Source of the DNA: Chloracidobacterium thermophilum B
GTDB lineage: Bacteria > Acidobacteriota > Blastocatellia > Chloracidobacteriales > Chloracidobacteriaceae
DNA: 64,000 nt
Reading direction: 5' to 3'
Assembly (NCBI RefSeq): GCF_000226295.1
Contig: NC_016024.1
Coordinates: forward strand, 541,501 to 605,500
The stretch's first letter is position 1, and each line of letters starts with the position of its first letter. A model generated the notes under the pieces. It was not told where the DNA came from. It ran no database searches and worked only from the letters and a program-made list of their open reading frames with translations. The translations under genes were made by a program, and so were the position numbers. This document shows, one piece after another, positions 4,455 through 26,775 of the stretch.

Positions 4455-5834
4455 ATGTCAAGTGAAGGCTTCCCACGCGCCACAGCCTATCTTCAGTGCA
4501 TCGAGACAACCTGCCGGGCCACCTACGACGCCAGCGAGCGAATCTACACCTGCGAGCAGTGCGGTGGTTTGCTCGATGTGCAGTACGAATGGCAACGCGC
4601 CCGGTTGTTCGATGTACTGGAGACCTTCGATGCCCGGCGTGCGTCTTTTCATCCACACGACACCAGCGGCGTCTGGCGTTTTCGTGAACTGCTGCCCTTT
4701 GTGACTTCGCCGGCGCAGATCGTCACTCTGGGCGAAGGCAACACCCCAGTGTGGGATGCGCCACGCAGCGCCGGCTATGCCGGTCTCAAACGGCTGGCGG
4801 TGAAGCACCAGGGTCTCAATCCGACCGGTTCCTTCAAGGACAACGGCATGACGACCGGCATGGCGCAGGCCCGCCGGCTGGGCGCGCGGGCCGTGGCCTG
4901 TGCCAGTACCGGCAACACTTCGGCTTCGCTGGCCGCCTATGCTGCGCGCGCCGGTGTTCACGGAATTGTCTTCATCCCCGGCGGGCGCATTGCCTACGGT
5001 AAACTGGCGCAAAGTCTCGATTACGGTGCGGTGACGCTCCAGATTGAAGGCAACTTCGACGATGCCATGCGGCTGGTTCGGGAACTGGCCCGTACCACGC
5101 CGCTGTATCTGCTCAACTCGGTCAATCCATTCCGGCTTGAAGGGCAAAAGACCATTGCCTTCGAGCTGTTGCAGCAGCGCCGGTGGCGCGTACCCGACTG
5201 GGTTGTGGTGCCCGGCGGCAATCTCGGCAATGTCTCGGCGCTGGGCAAGGGCTTCAAAGAACTGCATAACTTGGGGCTGATCGCACGGCTTCCCCGGTTG
5301 GCCGTCGTTCAGGCGGAAGGGGCAGCGCCGCTGGCGCAGTGGTACGCAGCCGGCCAGACCGGCAATCTTGCGCCTGTGGCGCGGCCCAAGACCCTGGCCA
5401 CGGCGATTCAGATTGGTAATCCCGTGTCGTGGCTGAAAGCCGTTCGCGCCCTGGAGTGGACAAACGGTGTGTGTGCCGTGGTTTCCGAACAGGAAATTGC
5501 CGACGCCAAAGCTATGCTGGGGCGCGACGGCATCGGCTGTGAACCGGCCAGCGCCGCCACCGTGGCTGGACTCCGGCGACTGGTCAGCGAAAGGGTTGTT
5601 GACCCGGATGCCGACGTGGTGGCGATTCTGACCGGCAACGCCCTCAAGGACCCGGACTTCACGGTGCAGTACCACACCGGGCAGCTCTACACCGACGCCG
5701 AACGTGAAACGCACCTTACCCACGCCGAAGGGAAGCTTGTCCCGACCTTTGCCAACACGCCACGGCAGGTTCCGGCGGATGCCACCGTTCTGCGGCAGGT
5801 CATCCTCGACCTTCTGGAAACACCGCCGGCCTGA
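4455..5834 (+). CDS. thrC: Threonine synthase
   Basis: A 459-residue fold-type II PLP enzyme converting O-phosphohomoserine to threonine. The PLP lysine is K128 in NPTGSFKDNGM and the phosphate-binding loop is seen in ASTGNTSASLAAYAARAG and PGGNLGNVSALGKGF. The N-terminus carries a small zinc-ribbon-like Cys set (C15, C20, C33, C36), common in longer threonine synthases. It starts 4 bases after the cysteine desulfurase stop. No thrA or thrB is nearby. Confidence 0.93.
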   Translation: MSSEGFPRATAYLQCIETTCRATYDASERIYTCEQCGGLLDVQYEWQRARLFDVLETFDARRASFHPHDTSGVWRFRELLPFVTSPAQIVTLGEGNTPVWDAPRSAGYAGLKRLAVKHQGLNPTGSFKDNGMTTGMAQARRLGARAVACASTGNTSASLAAYAARAGVHGIVFIPGGRIAYGKLAQSLDYGAVTLQIEGNFDDAMRLVRELARTTPLYLLNSVNPFRLEGQKTIAFELLQQRRWRVPDWVVVPGGNLGNVSALGKGFKELHNLGLIARLPRLAVVQAEGAAPLAQWYAAGQTGNLAPVARPKTLATAIQIGNPVSWLKAVRALEWTNGVCAVVSEQEIADAKAMLGRDGIGCEPASAATVAGLRRLVSERVVDPDADVVAILTGNALKDPDFTVQYHTGQLYTDAERETHLTHAEGKLVPTFANTPRQVPADATVLRQVILDLLETPPA

Positions 5835-5843
5835 TTGGGGCGT

Positions 5844-6620
5844 ATGCGGCAGGGGGTGCTTTTCCAAAGGCATGGCAGACGACACTGGCTGATCTGGCTG
5901 CTTATGGCCGGTTGGCTGCTTGCCGGTGTCGTTCCTGTCCTTTCCCAGGAAGACGATCCTGAGACCCTGCCGGAAAAAAGCCCCAACTGGACAGAACGCA
6001 CCGGCGCACGCGCGGCCTTTGTCGCCGATGCCGGTCTGGCGGCGCTGCGGGTGACGCCCGGCCCCGGCGGCGATCTCAAACAGCGCCTGCGCGTCGGGCG
6101 GCGCGTCTATGTGCTTGGCGGACGCCGGGTGGTTGAAGACCGTGTATATGTGTTCGTCGCCGTGACCCGGCGCACACGAGGCTGGATGGACCGGCGGGCG
6201 CTGGTACGTCCGGCCCAGCCGGGAGATGATGCCAGGCTGCTGGCGCTCATCCGGGCTGAAACCGGCGGCTACGAACGCCTGCGGCTGTGCCGGCTGTTTG
6301 AAAACCTGTTCCGCCGGTCGCCCCAGTTGCCAACGGTGCTGTTGCTGCTTGGAGAAACGGCCGAGGCCGAGGCCCCGCTGATATACCGGCGCGCCGAACG
6401 CCGGGTGTCACAGCGGGCCGCCGCTGGGAATGCCGATGTCAGGGCTTACTTTGATGACGAGCCGGCGCTGGATCGGTACAACCGGCTGGGGGTGAAGTTC
6501 CGCTATGATGCGGTGCGGAAGGCGTATCGCTACGACGGCGCGGCCTACCGGCGGCTGGTACAACAGTACCCACGCGCGCCGGAAGCCGAAATAGCGCGCC
6601 AGCGGTTGGCCGGCTTCTGA
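5844..6620 (+). CDS. Exported protein with an SH3-like N-terminal domain
   Basis: About 258 residues. A basic N-terminus (RQGVLFQRHGRRH) precedes a hydrophobic signal segment (IWLLMAGWLLAGVVPVL) with likely cleavage near Ser-Gln. Residues about 50-115 resemble a bacterial SH3 fold (ALRVTPGPGGDLKQRLRVGR, then RRTRGWMDRRALV), consistent with peptidoglycan or ligand binding in the periplasm. The C-terminal half is charged and helical with YRYDGAAYRRLVQQYP, reminiscent of a TPR-like tail. ATG 5844 was chosen; a TTG at 5835 directly after the thrC stop is an alternative. The specific function is unknown. Confidence 0.65.
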   Translation: MRQGVLFQRHGRRHWLIWLLMAGWLLAGVVPVLSQEDDPETLPEKSPNWTERTGARAAFVADAGLAALRVTPGPGGDLKQRLRVGRRVYVLGGRRVVEDRVYVFVAVTRRTRGWMDRRALVRPAQPGDDARLLALIRAETGGYERLRLCRLFENLFRRSPQLPTVLLLLGETAEAEAPLIYRRAERRVSQRAAAGNADVRAYFDDEPALDRYNRLGVKFRYDAVRKAYRYDGAAYRRLVQQYPRAPEAEIARQRLAGF

Positions 6621-6636
6621 GGTGGTTGTGGTCAGC

Positions 6637-6897
6637 CTACGGACAGGTGCACGGTGCGCCGCTTCCGCCCCGGCGGTCGGCCGCGGCTTCTGCCTGGGCG
6701 CGGGTGTCGAATTCGCCGAGCAGGCAGACCTGTCCACGGGCGCGCTGCATCTGCTCCGGGGTGCGCGTGTCCACTTCGAGTTTCCCATTGGCGCAGTAGA
6801 GACGGTACTTTACATCCGCGTTGACAACGCCAAGAGCTAGGCAGCCTGCCAGTCCCAACGCCAAACCTGCGAGCAGAGCTGAACGTACGGTCAGCAT
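6637..6897 (-). CDS. Small putative lipoprotein
   Basis: An 86-residue protein with a hydrophobic leader and a lipobox LAGC ending at about residue 19. The mature part contains further cysteines (YCANGKLEVDT, QVCLLGEFDT and the C-terminal CTCP), so disulfides are possible in the periplasm. An AGGGAG lies about 12 bases upstream of the ATG. It is convergent with the preceding SH3-like gene, 16 bp apart. No family is recognised. Confidence 0.6.
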   Translation of the reverse strand: MLTVRSALLAGLALGLAGCLALGVVNADVKYRLYCANGKLEVDTRTPEQMQRARGQVCLLGEFDTRAQAEAAADRRGGSGAPCTCP

Positions 6898-7065
6898 GGC
6901 AAGTTTTTCTCCCTATCCAAAGCAACGTATCCTGTCCAAGGCAGCATATTGGAGCGCTTCCGGTACGGAACTTTTGGTGTGCGTTGCACATCAAAGGTTG
7001 CTTGCGCCATAGTGCCGGATGGTTGCTGGTGGTCGCAACATCTGACTGAGGTTTGATTTCACGCG

Positions 7066-8271
7066 ATGCTCAAACTGACGGAAGGTCAACTGCGCCGTCT
7101 GGCCGAAACCTTGGACACGCTGCACTTGCGTGGCGTTCTGGGGGGAAACGTGCCGGCCTCCCGCAGCCGGACAGCGCTCATTGGTCAGGTCGTCGAACAG
7201 GCCCGGCAGCATGCGGCAACGGCGCACCGGCTCTACGAAGCCACCCGGCTGACACCGGAGCAGGTGCGGGAGTGGTTGGCCGAAGCCGCCCCGGACCTGC
7301 CGCCGGAAGCCTACACGCGCCTGATGCAGCTTCTGACGGCTTCGCTGGAGCCGGGTGAGCTGATTCCGGCCCAGCAGGTCGTGAGCCTGCTGACGATTGG
7401 GTTGCCAACGGTTCTGGAAGAACTGCGTGAGATTGAGTACCGCCGGCCGCGCCCGGGCCTGACCTATCACGAATTTCAGGTTGCCCGTCACCGCCGGGCG
7501 GCCCTTCAGAAGCTGCTCGAAGGTATCGGAACGCCGGAGCCGCAGCCGTTCGTGCCCGATCCCTTTCAGTTGGCGGCGGTTGCTTTTGTGACCGAGGAAG
7601 ACAAGGATGTGCTCGTGGCTGCGCCGACCGGTTCGGGCAAAACCTGGATTGCCGAGCAGGCTATCCGGTGCTTCCTCGAACGGGGTGGCACAGCGTGGTA
7701 CACCTCTCCGCTCAAGGCGCTTTCCAACGACAAGTTCCGTGAGTTTGGGCGGAAGTTTGGCCCCGACGCCGTGGGTCTCATTACGGGCGACCGCCGGGTG
7801 AACCCCGATGCGCCACTCAAAATTGCCACGACCGAGATTTACCGCAACGGCCTCTATGACGCGATGACGCGGGACGGCGTTTTTGGCGCGCCGGATTTGG
7901 TCGTTTTTGACGAAGTTCACTACCTTGGCGACCGCCACCGGGGCGTTGTGTGGGAAGAGTCCATTATCTACACGCCCGCTTCGACGCGCCTGCTGATGTT
8001 GTCGGCCACGGTTGGCAATGCCAGGGAACTGGCGGAATGGGTGACATGGACGCGCGGTGTTGAATGCCGGCTGGTGGCGCATCCGCAGCGGCCCGTGCCG
8101 CTGCGGACGGCCTTCATTCACCCGGATGGACGCCTTCAGCCGCTTTTCGAGGAAGGCAGTCCCGGACGCTTGCAGGCTGATGTCGAAGCCCTGTACATCA
8201 AAGCCAAGCAGCAGGAAGCGGCTGAGCAGGCGCGCCGGCGCCGTCCGCCTTTTCACCGCCGCCGGCGCTGA
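7066..8271 (+). CDS. DEAD/DEAH helicase N-terminal half (Ski2/Mtr4-like), no C-terminal RecA domain
   Basis: A 401-residue protein. Residues about 1-160 form a helical N-terminal region. The RecA1 domain follows with motif I APTGSGKT, motif Ia TSPLKALSNDKFREFG, TGDRRVNP, TTEIYRNGLYD, motif II DEVH in VVFDEVHYLGDRHRGVVWEE, and motif III LSATVGNA. These details resemble Ski2/Mtr4-type RNA helicases. The protein stops after about 60 more residues in an Arg-rich tail (RRRRPPFHRRRR), so motifs IV-VI and the second RecA domain are absent. The downstream sequence in all forward frames does not continue the helicase; a GC-rich repeat begins within a few bases of the stop. It could be a truncated remnant or a genuine single-RecA protein. 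Confidence 0.75.
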   Translation: MLKLTEGQLRRLAETLDTLHLRGVLGGNVPASRSRTALIGQVVEQARQHAATAHRLYEATRLTPEQVREWLAEAAPDLPPEAYTRLMQLLTASLEPGELIPAQQVVSLLTIGLPTVLEELREIEYRRPRPGLTYHEFQVARHRRAALQKLLEGIGTPEPQPFVPDPFQLAAVAFVTEEDKDVLVAAPTGSGKTWIAEQAIRCFLERGGTAWYTSPLKALSNDKFREFGRKFGPDAVGLITGDRRVNPDAPLKIATTEIYRNGLYDAMTRDGVFGAPDLVVFDEVHYLGDRHRGVVWEESIIYTPASTRLLMLSATVGNARELAEWVTWTRGVECRLVAHPQRPVPLRTAFIHPDGRLQPLFEEGSPGRLQADVEALYIKAKQQEAAEQARRRRPPFHRRRR

Positions 8272-8273
8272 CA

Positions 8274-8345
8274 CACGGGGGGCGTGGGCATCCCGCCCGC
8301 TGCTTTCACTAAAGCACACCGGGGGGCGCGGGCGTCCCACCCGCT
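8274..8345. repeat. Two copies of a REP-like GC-rich repeat
   Basis: Two imperfect direct copies of about 25-28 bp (8274-8301 and 8317-8345) share the core GGGGGGCG-GGGC-TCCC-CCCGCT with 22 of 25 bases identical. Each has internal dyad symmetry (GGGC..CCC). They lie between the convergent 3' ends of the half helicase and the cytochrome fusion gene, a typical place for REP-like extragenic elements. Confidence 0.6.
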
Positions 8346-8367
8346 TGGGAACGGGAACAAGCGGTGC

Positions 8368-11300
8368 CTACCGCTTCCGGTCGTCTCCGGCATACTTGAT
8401 GCCGAGTTTGGTGAGAAACTCCTTGGGCGCGATGCTGCCGATGAGGGCGAACACGTAGTCGTTGGGAATCCGCGCGATTTCGGACTTGTCCCGGATACTT
8501 TCGATAATGACTTCCCGATCGGTAATCTCACGGATGCCGGCGCCAAAGTAGGCTTTGATACGGCCGGCATCCATGCCGTAGTACACCCACATTTTGTTTT
8601 CGAGCGTCAGGTCTTTCGGGAAATCTGACCGGATGACGAGCGTGACGTGATTCGCTTCGGCCTCCGGCGGGAACTTGATCGTGCCATCGGGTTGGCGTTG
8701 GCCGGTCAGGTCCACGGCGGCTTCGACGGCCGAGTTGCCCGCGCCGACGACGACAATGTGTTTCCCTTTGAAGGCGCTGGGGTCCTGCAGGCGGTACAGC
8801 ACCCGGCCTTCGACCTCGCCGGGGCAGCCCAGTTTGCGCGGCTCGCCGGCATTGCCAATCGCCAGCACGACCTTGCGCGCGCGATACCCCTGCGCATGTT
8901 TGGTGGTTCTGACGACAAAGACTTCGCCCTCGCGCACAATTTCCTTGCAGCCTTCATATTCCCGGATGACCAGACCAAGCTTCTCGACGGTTTCATCCCA
9001 CCACGCGAGCATGTTTTCCTTGATGTCACCCGGCCCTTCGAGGCGGATTGCGCCGAGCGGCGGGTCGGAAGGGTTGAAGGGGTTGAAGGCGACGTACTTG
9101 CCGGCCGGATACTTGTCGGCGATGGTTGCGTATCGCCGGCCCTGTTCGATGGCGACGTAGCGCAGGCCCAGTTCGGCGGCCCGCGCCACAGCGGAAATCC
9201 CGCCCGGCCCGATCCCGATGATGGCCACGTCGTACTCGGCCCCGGCGACCGGCCCCTCAGCCTTGAGTTTCTCGGCAATGCGCTCGATGGCGAGCCGTCC
9301 TTCCTTGATGGCATTCCGAATGAGCGGTACGCCGGATACGTCCCCGACGAGATAGATGCCCGGCACGGTTTCGGTTTCAAAGCCTTCGTTGGCACCTTTG
9401 CGCAGGGGCTTGGGTGCTTCCCGGATGTTTTGCCGCGTGTTGATGAGAACACAGGACTGCGGCACGGTCGGACAGGCCTGCTGGCAGCCGGTGTCTTCCA
9501 TGCACTGTTCAAGGTTGACGACGATGGCGTGGTGCTCCTGATCGTCAAAGCCCAACACATCCTGGGGGCAGGCCAGAATGCAGGCGTGGCAGCCGATGCA
9601 GGTTTCATAGTTGATAACCGGATGGGGAATCGGGTGTTCCCGTGCCGAGGCGCGCGCGCGCTCGACCTGGGCTGGCGATTCCCACCGTTCGGCGTAGCGT
9701 GTGTCGGTAAACTTGCGGTGCCGGTTGGCCAGATCGAGGGCGTTGCCTTTGAGCGTTGCCTGTTCCCGCCGTTTGCGCAGCGTGTCGAAGGTCAGGAACC
9801 CGATGCCGGTCAGTGGGATGAGGCTGAAAAACAGCAGCCAGTTGCCAAGGGTGAAGCCGCCGAACCTGGCCGCCAGACTCGTCCACTGCCAGTCCTTTCC
9901 GCCACGATATACCCGGTCTTTGGTGAACACGACCGGTTCGGGACCGCTTCCGGCCGGACGGCGGGCCGCCGTCAGCGTTTGCGACTGGGGGTGCTGGGCG
10001 TGGCAGGAGTTGCAGTCAATGCCGAGGCGCAGGGCGTCGGTGTCGAGTTCCCTGAGCGATGCGGTTTGGACGTATGCCTGCCCGTGGCATACGGCACATT
10101 TGTCGCGGTTGATGACCTTGACCTCGGCCGCGCCTTTGGCAAACGAACCGTCATGGCACTCGCTGCACTTCCAGGCGCTCGTGGCCGGCGCAACAGCAGC
10201 GTGAATGAGATGAAACTTGGTCGAAGGATCGAGCGGCGTCCGGCTTTCGGCAAAGAGTTTGTCCCACTTCGGATTCATCGGATGCTGCCACGACCACACG
10301 CCGTTTTCGACCGGATAGCCGAATGAGCCACGGTGCGGTTCGCGCAGGGGGGTGCCGTCCTTCAGGCTGACGGCCTTGGGATGGGTTGGCCCGTCGCGGT
10401 GGCAATCAATGCACATGCTGCGCGAAACGATGCCGGGGCGGAAATCCGCGCCTTTGTGTTCGGTGTGGCAGTCCACGCACTGCATCCCGGCTTCTTCGTG
10501 TTTGGCAATGACGGTCGTGTTGAAATGGTTGGTTTCGTGGCAGTCCACGCACTTGTTCTGCATGGAAGAGGTGACGGCATGGCAGGCATTGCACTTGTTT
10601 TCCACCGGTGCGTTGGCCACGAGCTTCAGCTCCAGCCGCTGCTGGATGGGGGCCGGCAACCGGTCAGCCGGAAGGGCATGCGGATTTGACGTGTCGCCCG
10701 GCAGGTAGGCCGCTTCCCAGACGAAAAAGGCCGCCAGGCAGAGCACGGTTGCCACCGCGCCAAAGACATACAGGTAGCCCCGCGGCCACGGACGGATCAG
10801 ATCGTTGGTGGGAATCCAGTTGAACCGTTTTTTCCCCAAGTGCAGGTTGTGCTTTTTGAGTTCTTCGGGGAGTTCGCGGGGTTCGAGCGGAGACCGCTCA
10901 TCCAGCTTCTGCTCGCCCTTGATGGCCGCCTTGCGCCGCTCCCAGAAGACGTTCATCGCCTGCTGGAAACGCTTCTGTTCCTGTTCCGGCAGCGCGAGGA
11001 TGGAGGTCAGCAGACCGGTCATGCCGCGCTGGAGGCGGGCTGCCTGAAGCAGGCCGGTCGCCGTTTGTGGTGGGGGCGTCTGTTCCGGTGCTTCTGGCGT
11101 TGTGGCGGCTGGCGGCGTTTCCAGACGTTGCGTTTTACCGGTCAGGTTTTGCGTCACACCGCGTTGCTGAAGGTAGCCGGTCAGCTTTGGCAGCAGCGCC
11201 GTCTTACCCTGGGCAGTGGCCTGGAGGGGATCGCCGAGCAGGCGTGTGCTGCGTTCAGACGCGGCATAGGTGTCCACCTGGCGGTCCACGTCGAGCGTCA

Positions 11301-11607
11301 GGGTGCCCTCTGCAAGTGTCGGCCGGAGAACAAAAATGCCAATGCGGATGACATCGTCGGGCTGGAGTTCGACGGTTTCGACCAGAGCGCCGTTGACCTG
11401 GGTGCCGTTCGTGCTGGAAAGGTTCGTCAGCCACCAGCGCCCTTCGACTTCCCGGATGCCGGCATGAATCCGCGACACCGTGGGATGGTTGAGCACTAGG
11501 TCGCAGTCGGTCTGGGAGCCGATGACCAGTCCTTCCAGTTCGAGGACGAGATCGCCTTTATCGAGAAGGTCTTTCCGCTGAATGAGGAAGCGACTGAGTT
11601 TCGCCAT
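8368..11607 (-). CDS. FHA - heptaheme cytochrome c - ferredoxin - NAD(P)H:flavin oxidoreductase fusion
   Basis: A 1079-residue fusion. FHA domain about 20-95 (VSRIHAGIREVEG, LSSTNGTQVNG; the usual Gly-Arg of the first strand reads Gly-Ser). Transmembrane helix about 277-300. Seven CxxCH heme c motifs begin near residues 339, 353, 377, 399, 481, 504 and 532. Second transmembrane helix about 582-607, followed by RKRRE. 4Fe-4S ferredoxin 670-720 (CIGCHACILACP, then a second Cys set). A GDVSG motif near 755, then a thioredoxin-reductase-like module with FAD site GIGPGG (about 798) and NAD(P) site GAGNSA (about 955). The charges flanking the helices put FHA, ferredoxin and flavin domains in the cytoplasm and the hemes in the periplasm. 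This would be a one-polypeptide route from NAD(P)H to periplasmic hemes. It lies 83 bp downstream of its partner gene on the same strand. Confidence 0.9.
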   Translation of the reverse strand: MAKLSRFLIQRKDLLDKGDLVLELEGLVIGSQTDCDLVLNHPTVSRIHAGIREVEGRWWLTNLSSTNGTQVNGALVETVELQPDDVIRIGIFVLRPTLAEGTLTLDVDRQVDTYAASERSTRLLGDPLQATAQGKTALLPKLTGYLQQRGVTQNLTGKTQRLETPPAATTPEAPEQTPPPQTATGLLQAARLQRGMTGLLTSILALPEQEQKRFQQAMNVFWERRKAAIKGEQKLDERSPLEPRELPEELKKHNLHLGKKRFNWIPTNDLIRPWPRGYLYVFGAVATVLCLAAFFVWEAAYLPGDTSNPHALPADRLPAPIQQRLELKLVANAPVENKCNACHAVTSSMQNKCVDCHETNHFNTTVIAKHEEAGMQCVDCHTEHKGADFRPGIVSRSMCIDCHRDGPTHPKAVSLKDGTPLREPHRGSFGYPVENGVWSWQHPMNPKWDKLFAESRTPLDPSTKFHLIHAAVAPATSAWKCSECHDGSFAKGAAEVKVINRDKCAVCHGQAYVQTASLRELDTDALRLGIDCNSCHAQHPQSQTLTAARRPAGSGPEPVVFTKDRVYRGGKDWQWTSLAARFGGFTLGNWLLFFSLIPLTGIGFLTFDTLRKRREQATLKGNALDLANRHRKFTDTRYAERWESPAQVERARASAREHPIPHPVINYETCIGCHACILACPQDVLGFDDQEHHAIVVNLEQCMEDTGCQQACPTVPQSCVLINTRQNIREAPKPLRKGANEGFETETVPGIYLVGDVSGVPLIRNAIKEGRLAIERIAEKLKAEGPVAGAEYDVAIIGIGPGGISAVARAAELGLRYVAIEQGRRYATIADKYPAGKYVAFNPFNPSDPPLGAIRLEGPGDIKENMLAWWDETVEKLGLVIREYEGCKEIVREGEVFVVRTTKHAQGYRARKVVLAIGNAGEPRKLGCPGEVEGRVLYRLQDPSAFKGKHIVVVGAGNSAVEAAVDLTGQRQPDGTIKFPPEAEANHVTLVIRSDFPKDLTLENKMWVYYGMDAGRIKAYFGAGIREITDREVIIESIRDKSEIARIPNDYVFALIGSIAPKEFLTKLGIKYAGDDRKR

Positions 11608-11690: not shown

Positions 11691-14300
11691 TTAGCGCCAC
11701 AGGTAGTACACCACCTGAAAAATATGGACGACCATCAGGGCAAGCATGACGGAAGTCGAAATGACGTGGGGTGGCAGCCACAACTTCAGCGCCCGGTGAA
11801 TGTAAAGCAGCGCATCAATCCGCCGGATGGTGGCCAGGGCGTCGAGGATTTGTCCCAGAACCGCCTGCTCCGTCGGCGTCGTCTGGCTGGCGATGGCCTT
11901 GGCAAAGCGTTGCCGCACGTGTTTTAGCAGATCGTCGAGGGATTCCCGGTGCAGGTACTGCCGAAAGAGAAAGCCCAGTGAAAGCAGCGCCGCCACAGCC
12001 TGGTCGCGCGCGACCAGGAACGTCTGGGCAAATTGCGCCCTGCGCCCTTCCTTTTCGGCCTGTTCCTGGACCGTTACGGTCAGGTCGGCAATTTCCTGGT
12101 ACAGCTCCTCCCGCCGCCGCAGCAGGTCTTCGGCCAGAAGCGGCTCACCTTCGATTTTGGTCAGCAGCCGGGGGCCAAGCTGATACAGCAGGATGCCGAT
12201 AAGTCCAGTCAGGATGACCAGATCAAAGGAGATCATCAGCGCCGCTGTGACGGCCCCACCCAGATTCGTTCCGCCGTGAAGCAGCAGGACAATGCCGGCG
12301 ATGACACCGGCATAGGTGTGCGACAGCATCCAGACCTTGAGCGCTCCGCCCCGTCGCCGCCACATCTGCCGGCGGACGGGATAGAGCATGACGATGATGA
12401 TGCCGGCCAGTCCGACCAGTCCGGTGATCCAGCGGAAGTTGAACCAGTCCGACCTGAAGAGCGGCGTTCCCAGCCCATACTGGACGATGCCGGCCATGGT
12501 CGCCCCGCACAGCAGCACCGTCACCACGATGCCCACCAGGTGCGCCAGCCACTTGGCCCGGTCGGCATGTCCAAACGCATTGCCGGCGATCATCGAACCC
12601 GGATGACGCAGGGCCGGGCCGTGAATCCGGGCGATTTCGTTGAAGTAGGCGGTGGGCTTTACCCGTTTGAGCGCCCCGGTCGGACAGTTTTCCTCGCAGT
12701 TGTACTTGTGGGTGGCATAGACCGGCTTGCCGCCGGCGTCCTTCGGATTCAGGGGCGTGTTGTTGCACAGGTTGCACTTGATGGCGACCAGCTCTTCGCC
12801 CTGAGTTACCGGCTGGGGTTTGGGATCAAAGCGCAGTCCGAAGGCCGCCAACGGATCAAAGGATGCTTCTGGCGTCGTCTCTCCCCTGGCTGCTCCTCCT
12901 TTGCCGTTGCGGGACGCCCCGTTTTTGGACGGCGCCGCCTTGGCCGGCAGCTTGGCCGCGGAAGCTTTGAGTTCGCTCCGGGGGATGAGGGAAATGGCAT
13001 TGTAGGGGCACTGGGTCGCGCAATCGCTGCAACCAATGCACAGACTGGGAAGGATATCCACCTGTCCCCCCTCGAAGCGTGCAATGGCCCCAGTTGGGCA
13101 ACCGGTCAGGCACTCCGGGTCCTTGCAGTGCAGGCACACGGCCGGCATGAGCAGGGATTGGTCAAGGGTGGTGTGCGTCGGCGTCCGGGGGCGCAGGACG
13201 TGAATGCCCGTTCGTTTGAGCCGGGCATGTCCGTGAATCTGGTGGCAGGCCAGCGAGCAGTTGCCGCAGCGGATGCACAGGTCCATGTCCATCAGCAGCA
13301 GGTTGTTGGCATCCGCCAGCCCACGGTCAAGGAGGCGTTCCTGAGCTGTCTTGACGGCCGGGTTGAAGACCAAGGCTTGCGTCGGCTGGAGGGGTGTGCC
13401 GATGTCTCCGGCAGCCCCCAGCGCTGCCCGCAGCGCCTCCAGCAGGGCCGGGTCGCGGTGGAGGGCTTCGACCGGGATTTCCAGCAGTTCGGTCCGGCTC
13501 ATCGCCACGGCCCGGTAGGGAAACCGCGCCTCACGGACGGTCAGAGCATTGAAACCAAGGATGTAGCCCGGTCCCAGGTAATCTGTGACTTCTCCGTTCT
13601 GCGCCTGCCCGATGCGTTTGACCCAGCCATCCCGGATGAGCAGCAGCTTGCGGATGACTTCGCCTGCACTGGCCAGGACATGGCCCCGGGCAACCAACTG
13701 AAAATCCGCAATTTCGGCGACTTTTTTCCGCAGTTCGTCGGGAATCTGAAGCTGATTGGCAACGGCTGCGCGTCCGTTGTTGCGATAGGTGATGTCCAGC
13801 GCCGCTCCAAACTTCCTGAGCTTGCGCAGGACGCGCAGCGCCGGCCGTTGGACTTCCAGCACCCGCGCGCCGCGCTGCCGGTGGGCAATGACCGTGGCGC
13901 TGCGTGGCATCCCGGCCAGTACACCCATTTCACCGAAGGGTTTGCCCGGCTCAAAAACAGCCACCGGCTCGGCCACCCCGGCCACGAAGACTTCGACGGC
14001 CCCGGCCACGACGATGAAGAACGTGTTGGTGTCCCAGTCGCCCTGGCGTACGATCTCCAGTCCCGGTGGATAGTCATACATCCGTATGTAGGGCCCCACC
14101 TTCTTGCCGGGGCCGTAGTTGCGCCCGTAGATGGCAACTTCCAAATCCACGCCAAACTTGTAGCCATGGCCGGGTTCGTATTCGACCAGTTCTTCAATGG
14201 CTGAAATCCCCCGGATGGCTTCGAGGATGGCATGCCGGTTGGCGATCTCCTGACGTTTCATCGCAGTGGCTGTCACGGTGGCCGTCGCCGCAGCGTTCAT
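11691..14300 (-). CDS. cNMP-binding, multi-[4Fe-4S], di-heme b membrane protein
   Basis: An 869-residue protein from ATG 14300 (GGAGAA upstream). Residues about 75-165 are a cyclic-nucleotide-binding domain with an intact phosphate-binding cassette (FGEMGVLAGMPRSATV); a second, degenerate one spans about 195-285. Then come ferredoxin motifs: CIRCGNCSLACH (342-352), CLHCKDPECLTGCP (389-401), CIGCSDCATQCP (421-431) and CNLCNN...CEENCP (509-539). A linker leads to five predicted transmembrane helices (about 584-610, 624-643, 655-676, 684-708, 845-866). H661/H675 and H845/H859 are both HX13H pairs, the arrangement that holds two stacked b hemes in ferric reductase/NOX-type proteins. It is upstream of the FHA-cytochrome fusion and very probably cotranscribed with it. 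Confidence 0.88.
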   Translation of the reverse strand: MNAAATATVTATAMKRQEIANRHAILEAIRGISAIEELVEYEPGHGYKFGVDLEVAIYGRNYGPGKKVGPYIRMYDYPPGLEIVRQGDWDTNTFFIVVAGAVEVFVAGVAEPVAVFEPGKPFGEMGVLAGMPRSATVIAHRQRGARVLEVQRPALRVLRKLRKFGAALDITYRNNGRAAVANQLQIPDELRKKVAEIADFQLVARGHVLASAGEVIRKLLLIRDGWVKRIGQAQNGEVTDYLGPGYILGFNALTVREARFPYRAVAMSRTELLEIPVEALHRDPALLEALRAALGAAGDIGTPLQPTQALVFNPAVKTAQERLLDRGLADANNLLLMDMDLCIRCGNCSLACHQIHGHARLKRTGIHVLRPRTPTHTTLDQSLLMPAVCLHCKDPECLTGCPTGAIARFEGGQVDILPSLCIGCSDCATQCPYNAISLIPRSELKASAAKLPAKAAPSKNGASRNGKGGAARGETTPEASFDPLAAFGLRFDPKPQPVTQGEELVAIKCNLCNNTPLNPKDAGGKPVYATHKYNCEENCPTGALKRVKPTAYFNEIARIHGPALRHPGSMIAGNAFGHADRAKWLAHLVGIVVTVLLCGATMAGIVQYGLGTPLFRSDWFNFRWITGLVGLAGIIIVMLYPVRRQMWRRRGGALKVWMLSHTYAGVIAGIVLLLHGGTNLGGAVTAALMISFDLVILTGLIGILLYQLGPRLLTKIEGEPLLAEDLLRRREELYQEIADLTVTVQEQAEKEGRRAQFAQTFLVARDQAVAALLSLGFLFRQYLHRESLDDLLKHVRQRFAKAIASQTTPTEQAVLGQILDALATIRRIDALLYIHRALKLWLPPHVISTSVMLALMVVHIFQVVYYLWR

Positions 14301-14608
14301 AGGATATTGTTCTCCAGGTAGGGGTGCCCACCAACGACCGACTGGGTGGTGATGATGGGCGCGGCAAGGTGTTTGGTGCCAGGTTGAGAGGTGGCCTGGG
14401 CTGGGGGATGAAGATAGCCGATTTGTGAACAAAACAACACTTCAGGGCCGACCTCCCAAAAGGGGTGAGCTGCCCGGCCGCCTGACGCTTGTCAGATGAC
14501 CGCGTGGGCGTGACATATTGGTGTCGGCAACCTGGCGGCGTACCATGCACTGGAAGTGACGCAAATGCCAGGGAACAGACGATCTTTTCTGCGAGGCATC
14601 TTCAATCC
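14301..14608. promoter_or_regulatory. Divergent intergenic region between redox gene pair and phosphatase gene
   Basis: This 308-bp stretch separates two divergently transcribed units and must hold both promoters. Open frames that extend into it from either side lack ribosome sites and family similarity, and it contains no convincing gene. No cyclic-nucleotide regulator-type palindrome or strong sigma-70 hexamer pair was recognised by eye. Confidence 0.4.
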
Positions 14609-18367: not shown

Positions 18368-19246
18368 TTGGCGAAAAGAAACGGTACGCCCTTTCCAGCA
18401 ATCAGGCGAAACAGAAAACGTCACATAGCCTTTGGCTGGTACGGTGGAAAGTATTCACATCTCGACTGGCTTCTGCCTTTGTTGCCTCATTGTCACCATT
18501 ACTGTGAACCGTTTGGTGGCTCAGCCGCCGTCTTATTGAATCGGGAGCCATCGCCTGTGGAGACGTACAATGATGTTGATGGTGAAGTTGTCAACTTCTT
18601 CCGGGTTCTTCGGGACGAACTGGAATCTCTGGTAAGGGCCATTGGTTTGACTCCTTTTTCACGTGAAGAATTTGCAGTTGCCTGTGAGATTGATCCCAGT
18701 CTGGACCCTGTTGAGCGGGCGCGAAGATTCTATGTCCGCGCCCGTCAGGTACGTACCGGATTAGCACAATCGGCAACCGTCGGACGGTGGGCCAACTGCA
18801 AAAATACAAGCCGGGCCGGCATGGCCGGAGCTGTCTCCCGCTGGCTTGGAGCCGTTGAGAGCCTCCCAGACATAGCCTTGCGTTTATTGCAGGTTCAGAT
18901 TGAGAACCGACCAGCCATTGACATCATCCGCATGTATGACTCCCCTGAGACACTGTTTTACTGCGATCCGCCGTATGTTCACGAGACAAGAGGCGACAAT
19001 AATGCCTATGCCTATGAAATGACCGATGAAGAACACCGGGAACTGGCAAGTGTACTGAACTCTGTCCAAGGGCTTGTGGCAGTTTCAGGCTACGAATGTA
19101 AGTTGATGAATGATTTATATCCCTCTCCAAAGTGGCGCAAAAATGTTGCTCCAGCAAAAACAATACACTCAACAAAAGATGAAAGAACTGAAATTCTGTG
19201 GACGAATTACGATCCCAAGTCTATAAGATACAGAGGGTTATTTTAG
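18368..19246 (+). CDS. D12-class (Dam-like) N6-adenine DNA methyltransferase
   Basis: A 292-residue enzyme. SAM-binding motif WYGGK (residues 24-28) and EPFGGSAAVLLN (47-58), then YNDVDGEVVNFF, and catalytic motif IV DPPY (200-203) place it in the alpha/D12 class with Dam and M.DpnII. The start is TTG 18368 because no ATG lies near the conserved N-terminus. Four bases separate it from the next gene, a probable restriction endonuclease, so it likely protects the host against that enzyme. GC content falls along the gene, especially towards its 3' end, which suggests acquisition by transfer. Confidence 0.88.
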   Translation: MAKRNGTPFPAIRRNRKRHIAFGWYGGKYSHLDWLLPLLPHCHHYCEPFGGSAAVLLNREPSPVETYNDVDGEVVNFFRVLRDELESLVRAIGLTPFSREEFAVACEIDPSLDPVERARRFYVRARQVRTGLAQSATVGRWANCKNTSRAGMAGAVSRWLGAVESLPDIALRLLQVQIENRPAIDIIRMYDSPETLFYCDPPYVHETRGDNNAYAYEMTDEEHRELASVLNSVQGLVAVSGYECKLMNDLYPSPKWRKNVAPAKTIHSTKDERTEILWTNYDPKSIRYRGLF

Positions 19247-19250
19247 TACA

Positions 19251-20381
19251 ATGACAGAGCCAGACCAAATCCTCTCAGATGCACTAGAACGTGCTTCCAG
19301 GGACATAAACAAACCAATAGTTACAAATGACGAAATTCGCTCCAAGATTGAGCAGGTGTGTCGGGAACCCAGAAATCGTGCCTGCGCAAGGTTTCTCATG
19401 GCTTGTGCTTTGGCCAGGATACACCAGTCAACTGCTGATCCCCGGAAACCATACACAGAGATTGGTAGTGAGGATGCTTTCTCCGGGCGTTCCTATGATG
19501 AAAAGTATATTTCACGTTTGATATACGAAAATCATTTGCCTCTCAACCCTACAACGGCTTTCCTTACTCCTGCTTTCCGTAATCTGAATAAACCTCTCAC
19601 AGTGGATGTAAAGTTAAATGGTGAACCTCCACATACATACGAAATGACTTTGCAACTGCTTGATGAAATTTATCAGGGTAGGGTATCGGCTGAGGACTTG
19701 CTGACCGAAGTATTGCGTTTTTTGGTACTCATACGGGAAGAGAGAAAGAAAAGGATAGAAATTCTGCTTGACGGACTCAAATCTGAAAACAAGCTAACTT
19801 TGTCATCGGAAGAAATCGTTAGCCTGATTGAACAACATTTGAAGTGTAAAAACTCCAGCAGATTGCCTGTTTTGATTGTTGCTGCTGCTTACCAGTCAGT
19901 AAAAGATAAGCTTAAAGAAGAAGTTTTACCGTTGGCGAGCCATCAGGCTGCTGACAAACAAACGCGCTCTTTTGGAGATGTTGAAATCTGCCTCGAAAAT
20001 GAAGACCAAGTAGTAACAGTATATGAAATGAAAAGGAAGTGTGTGACAATTGATGATATAGACTCAGCTTGCGTAAAAATTTCGCCTGCAAGCAGAAAAA
20101 TAAACAACTATATTTTTATAACTACTGAAACAATTGAGGATGATGTCAGATTGTATGCACTGAGTTGTTATGAACGAACTGAAGGAACAGAAATTGCTAT
20201 ACTTGATTGTATAGGTTTTCTGCGACATTTTTTGCATATTTTCCACAGGTCAAGAGCCAGATTTCTGGATACCTACCAAAATCTCGTGTTGAGCGAACCT
20301 GAGAGTGCTGTCAGTCAAGCCCTGAAAGAAGCCTTTCTGGCGCTAAGACAGGCAGCAGAGGATAGGGGATCAGAGGACTGA
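19251..20381 (+). CDS. Probable type II restriction endonuclease, SacI-like
   Basis: A 376-residue protein starting 4 bases after the methylase stop. A conserved-looking block near residues 64-86 (DPRKPYTEIGSEDAFSGR then SYDEKYI) resembles what I recall of SacI-family endonucleases. A candidate PD-(D/E)xK site is D243 in FGDVEIC with E259 and K261 in YEMKRK. No helicase or specificity subunit is present. The gene is clearly AT-rich with codon use unlike its neighbours, as expected for a mobile restriction-modification pair. The endonuclease call rests mainly on context and the weak nuclease motif; the SacI link is from memory. Confidence 0.68.
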   Translation: MTEPDQILSDALERASRDINKPIVTNDEIRSKIEQVCREPRNRACARFLMACALARIHQSTADPRKPYTEIGSEDAFSGRSYDEKYISRLIYENHLPLNPTTAFLTPAFRNLNKPLTVDVKLNGEPPHTYEMTLQLLDEIYQGRVSAEDLLTEVLRFLVLIREERKKRIEILLDGLKSENKLTLSSEEIVSLIEQHLKCKNSSRLPVLIVAAAYQSVKDKLKEEVLPLASHQAADKQTRSFGDVEICLENEDQVVTVYEMKRKCVTIDDIDSACVKISPASRKINNYIFITTETIEDDVRLYALSCYERTEGTEIAILDCIGFLRHFLHIFHRSRARFLDTYQNLVLSEPESAVSQALKEAFLALRQAAEDRGSED

Positions 20382-25094: not shown

Positions 25095-25688
25095 ATGACT
25101 AGGTATGTAAAACCGAGAGAAGCGGCGGATTATTTTGGGGTGTGTCTCCACACTTTGAGGCGGTGGGAACAGAAAGGTTGGATCAATGCAACACGTACAC
25201 CATCTGGTAGGGCGAGAAGGTATGACCTCGACAGCTACATCAAAACGCCAAGAAAAGTCAAACGAGTCGTTTTGTACGCCCGAGTCAGCAGTCGAGGACA
25301 GAAACCAGACTTGGAGAGACAAATTGCAAGACTGGTTAACCTCTATCCTGGAGCCGAAGTGGTCGGAGAGGTTGGCGGCGGTCTCAACTTCAAAAGACCA
25401 AAGTTCCTTGCCTTATTGGAACGAGTCCGTGCAGGAGATGTCGGAACAATTGTGGTCGCTCACCGGGATCGACTCTGCCGGTTTGGATTTGAGTTCGTTG
25501 AGTGGTACTGCCATCAATACGGGTGCGAAGTCTTGGTTCTCGATGACGATCACCTTTCTCCCCAACAGGAACTGGTTGAGGATATCCTCACCATCCTGCA
25601 CTGCTTCAGTAGTCGGCTCTACGGACTTGGGAAGTATCGGACTGCAATCGAGAAAGATACGGATTTATCCAGAACCAGCGCTGGCTAA
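25095..25688 (+). CDS. tnpA: IS607-family serine recombinase (transposase A)
   Basis: A 197-residue protein from ATG 25095. Residues about 1-45 form a MerR-like helix-turn-helix (PREAADYFGVCLHTLRRWEQ, then GWINATRTPSGRARRY). The catalytic resolvase-type domain follows with the nucleophile serine in YARVSSRGQK, then DLERQIARL and HRDRLCRFGFEFVE. The C-terminus ends in FSSRLYGLGKYR, as in other IS607 TnpA proteins. It cuts and joins DNA through a phosphoserine intermediate and generates no target duplication. Its 3' end overlaps the start of tnpB. Confidence 0.93.
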   Translation: MTRYVKPREAADYFGVCLHTLRRWEQKGWINATRTPSGRARRYDLDSYIKTPRKVKRVVLYARVSSRGQKPDLERQIARLVNLYPGAEVVGEVGGGLNFKRPKFLALLERVRAGDVGTIVVAHRDRLCRFGFEFVEWYCHQYGCEVLVLDDDHLSPQQELVEDILTILHCFSSRLYGLGKYRTAIEKDTDLSRTSAG

Positions 25689-26775
25689 AGTTTGGAAGCA
25701 GTGGCAAGCGGCGTGCCGGTACTGCTACAACCAAGGGATTGCCTATCAGCGTCAGTATGGTGCCCCAAAAACAGCCAGAAAGCTGCGGGACATCATTCTG
25801 CGCTCCGACCTGCCCCAGTGGGTGAAGGACACCCCCTGCCATATCAAGCAGAACGCGGTCGTCGAGGCGTGGTTGGCGTTTCGCCGGAGCAAAGACGCGA
25901 GGTTTCGTAGTGTGCGGGACAGGTCGCATACACTGCAATTCAACGCCGGCAACTTTCGCAATGGGACGTGGTATCCGAAAATCACCCGAGGCTTGACGTT
26001 TCGTGCGTCCGAGGAGATACCCGGAGAATGGACACGCGGAACTGAGCTAATGCGGGTGAAAGACAGATGGTATGCCATCTTTCCTGAGCCCGTGAACGAG
26101 CAGTGTTCGTTAGCAAAGGGGGGGATTGCGCTTGACCCTGGAGTAAGAAGTTTCTTTACAGGGTTTGATGGGACAGGTTTTGTAGATATTGCCAAAGGGG
26201 ACTTTGGTAGGATCGCTCGGCTGTGCTACCACCTGGACGCTCTGCAATCCAGGCTGAGCAAAGTACCGAGACTTAAGCGTAGGCGAATGCGGCAAGCGGC
26301 GTTTCGTCTGCGAGAGAAAATCAGGGACTTGGTGGACGAGTGCCATCGCAAGGTAGCGGCGTTCCTAACGGATAACTACCGATTGATATTTCTCCCCACT
26401 TTCGAGTCAGCCAGGATGGTTGCCAAGGCAGGGAGGAAGTTTGGTAGCAAGACGGCGAGGGCGATGCTCACTTGGGCGCACTATCGGTTCAAACAGTTCC
26501 TGAAGTTTCAAGCCAAAAAGAAAAACGTGGTTGTCGTGGAAGTATCGGAAGCGTACACCAGCAAAACCTGTACCAAGTGCGGGCACATCCACACTAAGTT
26601 AGGTGGTGCAAAGGTGTTTAGATGCCCCAAGTGCAACCATAGGCTACCACGAGATTGGCAAGGTGCTCTGGGTGTTATGCTCAGAGCTTTGCGGGATACC
26701 GCCATTCTGTTCAGAAATGGACAGGATGCTATCGCTTCACCGTTGAGCAGTAATGTTCAGCAGTGTTCAGCGTAA
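25627..26775 (+). CDS. tnpB: TnpB-type RNA-guided nuclease (IS607 accessory protein)
   Basis: About 382 residues. The RuvC catalytic triad is intact: D170 in GGIALDPGVRSFF, E260 in LIFLPTFESAR and D343 in RLPRDWQGALG. A four-cysteine zinc ribbon lies between motifs II and III (CTKCGHIHTK..., FRCPKCNHR). The family start block SRKIRIYPEPA appears at residues 8-18. The start is uncertain: TTG 25627 places it just before this block; ATG 25543 in the same frame is possible but mostly shadows tnpA. TnpB proteins use an RNA made from the element's right end to cut DNA and aid retention of the element. Confidence 0.88.
   Translation: MGSIGLQSRKIRIYPEPALAKVWKQWQAACRYCYNQGIAYQRQYGAPKTARKLRDIILRSDLPQWVKDTPCHIKQNAVVEAWLAFRRSKDARFRSVRDRSHTLQFNAGNFRNGTWYPKITRGLTFRASEEIPGEWTRGTELMRVKDRWYAIFPEPVNEQCSLAKGGIALDPGVRSFFTGFDGTGFVDIAKGDFGRIARLCYHLDALQSRLSKVPRLKRRRMRQAAFRLREKIRDLVDECHRKVAAFLTDNYRLIFLPTFESARMVAKAGRKFGSKTARAMLTWAHYRFKQFLKFQAKKKNVVVVEVSEAYTSKTCTKCGHIHTKLGGAKVFRCPKCNHRLPRDWQGALGVMLRALRDTAILFRNGQDAIASPLSSNVQQCSA
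26756..26774. repeat. IS607 right-end imperfect inverted repeat
   Basis: Inverted partner of the left-end 19-mer at 25041-25059. It overlaps the last codons and the stop of tnpB and lies about 20 bp from the 3' end of the RNase J gene. Confidence 0.6.

What the first reader, a model, noticed from the sequence alone, without database searches (positions are those of the whole stretch)
8368..11607. FHA domain fused to a seven-heme cytochrome c, ferredoxin and NAD(P)H-flavin module
Seen: one 1079-residue frame holds an FHA domain, a helix, seven CxxCH motifs, a second helix, a 4Fe-4S domain and a thioredoxin-reductase-like module with FAD and NAD(P) motifs. Known: FHA binds phosphothreonine; multiheme c domains act in the periplasm. 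Inference: it could be a phospho-regulated single-chain conduit from NAD(P)H to periplasmic hemes. I know of no characterised protein with this order.
Basis: partly seen in the sequence, partly recalled or inferred. Interest (0 to 1): 0.8.

Follow-up and report, generated by a model that had tools for sequence, protein, structure and literature searches.

The report
Half of a gated electron-export machine
A bacterial protein that joins a cytoplasmic NAD(P)H-reductase end to seven haems outside the membrane turns out to be one half of a conserved two-gene machine, with a cyclic-nucleotide-binding membrane partner, that probably lets Acidobacteriota push surplus electrons through the cell envelope under signal control.

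Summary
In detail: window 8368-11607, minus strand, is an intact 1079-aa frame with FHA, TM helix, seven CxxCH, TM helix, 2x4Fe-4S and a TrxR-like FAD/NAD(P) module. It recurs in 6 of 6 other same-genus genomes, so it is no assembly error. "Phospho-regulated single-chain conduit" is only partly right. Its two helices hold no histidine and offer no haem route across the membrane. The missing part is the next gene (11691-14432, minus): cyclic-nucleotide-binding domains, 16 conserved cysteines (four 4Fe-4S) and five TM helices with two H-x13-H pairs (predicted di-haem b). The two genes are adjacent in 61 of 62 testable loci. In relatives the reductase splits off, is fused to the partner's domains, or is replaced by a NuoEF-like module. 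Neighbours are multihaem cytochromes, a probable outer-membrane barrel and, in three loci, a cyclase/phosphodiesterase pair. In 396 Acidobacteriota genomes the partner's membrane domain (46) and the LVIVD-cytochrome (41) or barrel (40) genes coincide in 36. Best reading: a cyclic-nucleotide-gated NAD(P)H-to-exterior electron conduit; the FHA in this lineage lost its phosphate-binding arginine. Electron flow, direction and gating are inferred. Not described in the papers seen.

The parts
8368..11607 (-). P: FHA - TM - heptahaem c - TM - 2[4Fe-4S] - TrxR-like NAD(P)H/FAD protein, 1079 aa
   Evidence: intact frame; Pfam; conserved in relatives
11338..11526 (-). FHA domain (aa 28-90); GR-motif arginine replaced by Ser31
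   Evidence: Pfam; column count
10717..10773 (-). TM helix 1 of P (aa 279-297), in to out
   Evidence: hydropathy and K/R bias
9991..10680 (-). periplasmic heptahaem domain (aa 310-539): 7 CxxCH + 7 invariant extra His
   Evidence: 29 of 29 rows
9793..9849 (-). TM helix 2 of P (aa 587-605), out to in, followed by a K/R-rich stretch
9451..9624 (-). ferredoxin domain (aa 662-719), 8 invariant Cys
   Evidence: Pfam; 25 of 25 rows
8386..9234 (-). TrxR/YpdA-like FAD-NAD(P) module (aa 792-1074), no CxxC
   Evidence: Pfam; Cys only at 887 and 928 after residue 740; best PDB fold YpdA Z 18.4, rmsd 5.7, 264 aligned
11691..14432 (-). N: partner gene, cNMP x2 - 4x[4Fe-4S] - 5 TM; listed start is TTG, likelier start ATG at 14300 by comparison with relatives; 83 bp upstream of P
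13833..14072 (-). cNMP-binding domain 1 with canonical phosphate-binding cassette (FGEM..PR.AT)
   Evidence: Pfam; Arg invariant in 41 rows and Glu in 90% or more
13353..13760 (-). cNMP-binding domain 2 (degenerate cassette)
   Evidence: two stretches in Pfam; consensus; CNB fold
12684..13277 (-). DsrO/HydN-like iron-sulfur domain, 16 conserved Cys
   Evidence: NCBIfam (the 25 rows shown of 42 are all under cut-off); conserved in every row with a residue there (17-26 rows per column)
11694..12560 (-). membrane domain of N, five TM helices, predicted two b-haems (H705/H719 and H889/H903)
   Evidence: His 27 of 27 rows; TM flanks; AlphaFold2 helices

Best explanation
P and its neighbour N are two halves of one inner-membrane oxidoreductase. 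Proposed path: NAD(P)H reduces FAD in P's TrxR-like module; electrons pass to P's 2[4Fe-4S] domain, then to N's four cytoplasmic [4Fe-4S] clusters, across the membrane through two b-haems in N, and out to P's seven periplasmic c-haems. From there they go to periplasmic multihaem cytochromes and, at the outer membrane, to a probable beta-barrel / LVIVD-multihaem pair whose homologues this genome carries on its second contig. The net effect is a leak of reducing power to the outside, so it needs a gate: the most likely gate is a cyclic nucleotide bound by N; P's FHA is probably a docking domain that in this lineage no longer reads phosphothreonine. Shown by sequence: parts, topology pattern, conserved ligands, operon, module exchange, co-occurrence. 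Inferred: cofactor binding, electron flow and its direction, gating.
For: Ligands: 7 CxxCH + 7 extra His in P 29/29; four TM His of N 27/27; 16 Cys of N. N-P adjacency on one strand in 61 of 62 testable loci, median gap 44 bp. The same modules recur on different chains: TrxR-cNMP-FeS on one chain (L136, L137, L140), FHA-10haem-FHA (L136, L137), TrxR-FHA (L135), and a NuoEF-like protein plus HoxU-like-cNMP-FeS in L142: the input is an NAD(P)H module by several routes. Co-occurrence of N's membrane domain with the LVIVD cytochrome (36 shared of 46 and 41) and with the barrel (36 shared of 46 and 40) in 396 genomes; in genus g13 the same 2 of the 14 listed genomes hold all three and 12 hold none. 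Own genome holds barrel and LVIVD 10-CxxCH protein side by side (L129) and further multihaem proteins. A PDEase_II gene and an FHA-GAF-cyclase gene lie just downstream of P in L038, L039, L057 and form a pair in the own genome.
Against: No biochemistry. N's membrane domain matches no Pfam family credibly (E up to 1) and no PDB sequence credibly; its fold was not tested alone. AlphaFold2 confidence is moderate (N pLDDT 74, iron-sulfur part about 40-60; P pLDDT 69, pTM 0.42). Ten loci lack the reductase nearby, and the 8 of them in the tree fall in one clade, so NAD(P)H input by this module is not universal. 10 of 46 genomes with the membrane domain have neither barrel nor LVIVD cytochrome, and 5 of 41 with the LVIVD cytochrome (4 of 40 with the barrel) lack the membrane domain at the thresholds used. 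In the window genome the outer-membrane genes are on another contig. The barrel rests on weak signs only.
Confidence: 0.6

Rival explanations
1. Quinone-linked version: N's b-haems exchange electrons with menaquinol, so N-P is an NAD(P)H- and quinol-linked cytochrome c reductase working like CbcL, with the exterior only one of its outlets.
For: CbcL, a di-haem b domain joined to a multihaem c domain, is described as a quinone oxidoreductase (PMC9129911, passages); further conserved His 631 and 879 lie near N's TM helices (25 of 26 and 25 of 27 rows).
Against: N carries 16 conserved iron-sulfur cysteines and neighbours supply NAD(P)H modules, which a pure quinol dehydrogenase would not need.
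Confidence: 0.3
2. Reverse flow: electrons from outside (or from periplasmic donors) enter through P's haems and, driven by reverse electron transport, reduce ferredoxin or NAD(P)+ in these organisms.
For: All carriers are reversible in principle; barrel/cytochrome pairs could import electrons.
Against: Moving electrons inward to NADP+ runs against both redox span and membrane potential (inference). Genes for a coupling ion pump were not searched for.
Confidence: 0.12
3. Redox sensor/signalling device: FHA, cNMP and cyclase genes mean the complex reports the NAD(P)H or envelope redox state to a signalling pathway, with little electron flux.
For: FHA and cNMP domains are present in nearly all loci read; an FHA-GAF-cyclase and a phosphodiesterase gene lie next to P in three loci.
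Against: A full chain of about 16 predicted redox centres and co-inheritance with outer-membrane cytochromes fits flux better; the FHA phosphate-contact Arg is lost in this lineage.
Confidence: 0.12

Closest known systems
CbcL of Geobacter sulfurreducens (inner-membrane b/c cytochrome of extracellular electron transfer)
   Same: Transmembrane di-haem b domain plus periplasmic bis-His multihaem c domain feeding periplasmic cytochromes (PMC9129911, passages)
   Different: CbcL is one chain with six TM helices and nine haems and is described as a quinone oxidoreductase; here b and c parts are on two chains and a flavin/iron-sulfur NAD(P)H input and FHA/cNMP domains are added
Rnf-MmcA of Methanosarcina acetivorans
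   Same: Electrons pass to a multihaem c-type cytochrome used in intra- and extracellular electron transport (search listing and abstract start only, PMC11024163)
   Different: Rnf uses ferredoxin, membrane flavins and ion pumping (recalled); Rnf subunits were not searched for here
YpdA / TrxR-like ferredoxin-NADP reductases
   Same: Best fold and sequence matches of residues 790-1075
   Different: No CxxC; NCBIfam YpdA score 124.9 against a cut-off of 339.9; fused to ferredoxin, haems and FHA
Porin-cytochrome conduits (Mtr, Pcc)
   Same: Barrel-like and multihaem genes inherited together, some multihaem proteins with MtrC/MtrF-type domain matches
   Different: The own-genome barrel protein has no Pfam match at E 0.5 and its partner is an LVIVD-repeat cytochrome

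Membership tests
FHA (pThr-binding) | FHA fold by profile | tested here: met
   PF00498 67.4 bits, cut-off 20.7
FHA (pThr-binding) | Arg of the GR motif (phosphate contact; recalled) | tested here: not met
   Ser31 in the window; Arg in 50 of 62 rows but missing in 9 of 12 fused loci
multihaem c-type cytochrome | CxxCH motifs with a second axial histidine each | tested here: met
   7 CxxCH + 7 extra His, 29 of 29 rows; haem itself not shown
thioredoxin reductase | redox-active CxxC | tested here: not met
   no CxxC after residue 780
YpdA bacillithiol disulfide reductase | NCBIfam TIGR04018 cut-off | tested here: not met
   124.9 of 339.9 bits
cyclic-nucleotide-binding protein (N) | cNMP domain with Glu/Arg phosphate-binding cassette | tested here: met
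   PF00027 88.6 bits; Arg invariant in 41 rows, Glu in 90% or more; binding untested
CbcL-type b/c oxidoreductase | membrane domain with two b-haems | tested here: inconclusive
   two H-x13-H pairs invariant in 27 rows; fold not tested alone
CbcL-type b/c oxidoreductase | b and c domains on one chain | tested here: not met
   separate genes N and P in 61 of 62 testable loci; in L098 N is also a separate gene
CbcL-type b/c oxidoreductase | quinol oxidation | not testable with these tools
   needs enzymology
Mtr/Pcc porin-cytochrome | MtrB-type or other recognised outer-membrane porin | tested here: inconclusive
   no Pfam match to the own-genome barrel protein; aromatic 11.7%, C-terminal Phe, modest strand-alternation z 2.0 against at most 1.5 in 28 other frames

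The most novel reading that the evidence does not exclude
A quinone-independent respiratory exit: a modular, cyclic-nucleotide-gated complex that carries electrons straight from NAD(P)H through iron-sulfur and b-haem relays to periplasmic and then extracellular multihaem cytochromes, present in a chlorophototrophic acidobacterium and, with exchanged NAD(P)H-input modules (TrxR-like, NuoEF-like, FNR-type), in many Acidobacteriota and some Pseudomonadota.
Probability: 0.42. Interest if true: 0.9.

Novelty: new variant of a known kind. Interest (0 to 1): 0.78.

Why it matters
Extracellular electron transfer is usually thought to be fed from the quinol pool (recalled); a complex drawing directly on NAD(P)H and switched by a second messenger would be a different way to run and control it. 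It would also give Acidobacteriota, common soil bacteria, and a hot-spring phototroph, a concrete testable route for dumping reducing power. The natural fusions and fissions make the electron path readable from sequence and testable part by part.

Tried and rejected
Assembly artefact or two genes joined: rejected, same frame in 6 of 6 other same-genus genomes; the split form was seen in other families.

Eighth haem: rejected, the CxxCH at 670 lies in the ferredoxin.

Thioredoxin or bacillithiol reductase: rejected as enzyme identity (no CxxC, YpdA score far under cut-off).

Fold of N's membrane domain: not settled. Fold searches were filled by the cNMP domain; PDB and Pfam sequence searches gave nothing credible. 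Absence of a match is no evidence of a new fold.

The roughly 1-1.6 kb between P and the split-off reductase gene in L055, L056 and L058 was not identified.

Literature: all 10 searches used. Searches returned no paper; the others listed papers (one search showed 15 of 108, 6 of 11), and nothing in the listings or passages I saw describes this protein or operon. PMC11788075, PMC6759342, PMC8100337 and PMC9129911 were read in passages only. The organism name Chloracidobacterium rests on titles of related records and on recalled genome layout.

Rows and controls: the P alignment used 28 homologue rows plus the window; near-duplicates L009, L011-L014, L019 and truncated or duplicate L021, L027, L045 were left out. 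The N alignment used 26 rows plus the window. One search used 55 rows (window and loci whose N is over 700 aa). Co-occurrence ignores kinship and joins three searches with different E-value limits (1e-10, 1e-60, 1e-30). The family search that located multihaem genes (PF14522, E up to 0.1) also rang in 5 of 14 control genomes, over the cut-off in 2; I rely on the CxxCH counts instead. The barrel score is home-made.
Full report
OBSERVATION. The frame is real and intact on the minus strand, 8368..11607, 1079 aa. Domains by Pfam: FHA 28-90, ferredoxin 662-713, Pyr_redox 792-1074, with c3-type cytochrome signal at 478-544. Seven CxxCH lie between two hydrophobic helices (279-297, 587-605); an eighth CxxCH belongs to the ferredoxin. 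The protein recurs in 6 of 6 other same-genus genomes, in one of them cut by a contig end.

ANATOMY. In an alignment of 29 rows the seven CxxCH and exactly seven further histidines of the outer domain are invariant, which fits seven bis-His, purely electron-carrying haems. The ferredoxin keeps eight cysteines in 25 of 25 rows. The TrxR-like module has no CxxC; the nearest solved folds are YpdA (Z 18.4, rmsd 5.7, 264 aligned), other TrxR-like proteins and TrxR-type ferredoxin-NADP reductases. So it most likely passes electrons from NAD(P)H through FAD to the fused ferredoxin. Charges place FHA and flavin inside and haems outside: 5 K/R in the 15 residues after helix 2, and more K/R before than after helix 1 in 52 of 59 homologues. 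Neither helix has a histidine, so P alone offers no haem route across the membrane.

THE PARTNER. 83 bp upstream on the same strand, 11691..14432, lies N: cNMP-binding domains (two Pfam stretches), a DsrO/HydN-like iron-sulfur region and five TM helices. Sixteen cysteines are conserved in every row that has a residue there, and four TM histidines, in two H-x13-H pairs on helices 3 and 5, are invariant in 27 of 27 rows. By charge, helices 3 and 5 run the same way, so the first histidines can pair on the inner side and the second on the outer side, as in cytochrome b (comparison recalled). This is a predicted two-haem wire across the membrane. The first cNMP domain keeps the phosphate-binding cassette: Arg133 (numbering from the likely start) is invariant and Glu124 is in 90% or more of 41 rows.

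OPERON AND MODULE EXCHANGE. A scan of a public genome collection with N's membrane domain gave 68 loci: 67 with N, all titled as Acidobacteriota, Blastocatellia, Pyrinomonadaceae or Chloracidobacterium except L049, titled Actinomycetota though its contig name says Acidobacteria; the 68th is a weak gammaproteobacterial hit, L113. Of the 67 (L046-L112), 62 have at least 300 bp after N; P follows on the same strand in 61 (median gap 44 bp). The exception, L098, has FHA and cytochrome on two consecutive frames. Among the 61: 12 fused to the reductase, 34 with the reductase as a separate downstream gene, 10 without it nearby, 5 cut by contig ends. On a tree of N the fused state needs two changes, one not being ruled out by well-supported branches. 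In other classes of the phylum the same modules appear rearranged (12 regions fetched; two of them, L143 and L144, repeat L087 and L095): TrxR-cNMP-cNMP-FeS on one chain (L136, L137, L140), FHA-10haem-FHA (L136, L137), TrxR-FHA (L135), and in L142 a NuoEF-like protein followed by HoxU-like-cNMP-FeS, all under NCBIfam cut-offs. In Pseudomonadota 15 of 398 genomes hold the membrane domain, the query genome included. Of 10 regions read there, 9 hold a multihaem protein like the one beside it in L113, 6 an FNR-type reductase like L113's and 6 a protein like the cNMP/iron-sulfur proteins of L135 or L141; one region (L155) showed none of these. What tends to stay together is an NAD(P)H module, an iron-sulfur relay, the membrane domain and a multihaem c protein.

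OUTWARD LINKS. Around N-P in the 67 loci, frequent neighbour families are nine-haem type (31 loci), four-haem type (24), a 259-aa family without Pfam match (19), HbpS-like (17), TPR (15) and barrel-like (14) proteins. In L057 the order is barrel-like, LVIVD-repeat 9-CxxCH protein, 4-haem, 8-haem, 9-haem, N, P; L064 has the same order from the LVIVD protein on, with an unidentified cut frame before it. The window genome holds the barrel-like and a 10-CxxCH LVIVD protein side by side on contig 2 (L129), a 9-CxxCH protein with a lipobox-like start beside a 4-CxxCH protein (L130) and a 9-CxxCH/HbpS pair (L131). In 396 Acidobacteriota genomes: membrane domain 46, LVIVD cytochrome 41, barrel 40; membrane domain shared with each of them in 36 (Fisher 1.6e-36 for the LVIVD protein, kinship ignored). 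Against: 10 have the membrane domain with neither, and 5 have the LVIVD protein (4 of them the barrel too) without it. In genus g13 the same two of 14 listed genomes have all three and twelve have none, which points to joint gain or loss.

SIGNAL. The one class III cyclase found in the window genome (the family also rings in 5 of 14 control genomes) is an FHA-GAF-cyclase protein with a weak PilZ match, next to a PDEase_II/metallo-beta-lactamase gene, about 9 kb from the 9-CxxCH protein of L130. Homologues of both lie just downstream of P in L038, L039 and L057; the phosphodiesterase alone lies within 5 kb downstream of P in L040 and L064; weaker cyclase matches lie upstream of N in L079 and L110. 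This links cyclic-nucleotide turnover to the machine in those lineages.

MECHANISM AND LIMITS. Best reading: NAD(P)H - FAD - 2[4Fe-4S] (P) - 4[4Fe-4S] - b - b (N) - 7 c (P) - periplasmic and outer-membrane cytochromes, gated by cyclic nucleotide on N. Outward flow is downhill in redox and membrane potential (inference). Ten loci lack the reductase nearby. The barrel rests on composition, C-terminal Phe and a modest home-made strand score.

NOVELTY. No paper seen describes this protein, operon or the LVIVD/barrel pair (open PMC papers only, long lists seen in part). Parts are known kinds; the combination - a CbcL-like b/c relay on two chains with direct NAD(P)H input and second-messenger domains - is a new variant.

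Noticed in passing
L153 2409-3696 (own genome C2 about 986.4-987.7 kb): CRISPR-like array: 18 copies, shared part about 36 nt, spacing 71-74 nt, also read as a false 305-aa frame.
   Followed up: partly
window 18368-20381: D12-class adenine DNA methyltransferase followed by a 376-aa gene with no Pfam match, perhaps its restriction partner.
   Followed up: partly
window 25186-26775: TnpB/OrfB-type (IS605, Cas12f1-like) protein with about 150 aa before its first matched domain.
   Followed up: no
window 7066-8271: 401-aa frame with a DEAD-box domain and no second helicase domain matched; may be a truncated helicase.
   Followed up: no
L154 1-10211; parts also in L113, L157, L158, L161, L162: Pseudomonadota operon: multihaem, barrel-like, FNR-type reductase, c554-like, cNMP-FeS, membrane b domain, ten-haem protein in L154; the other loci show some of these parts. 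May be a further unnamed electron-export system.
   Followed up: partly
L131 12403-15782 (own genome C2 about 300-304 kb): Nine-CxxCH protein beside an HbpS-like protein; a 1118-aa gene nearby (5193-8546) weakly matches N proteins; possibly alternative complex III (recalled).
   Followed up: no
genomes G007 and G009: Each carries two copies of the N-P pair.
   Followed up: no
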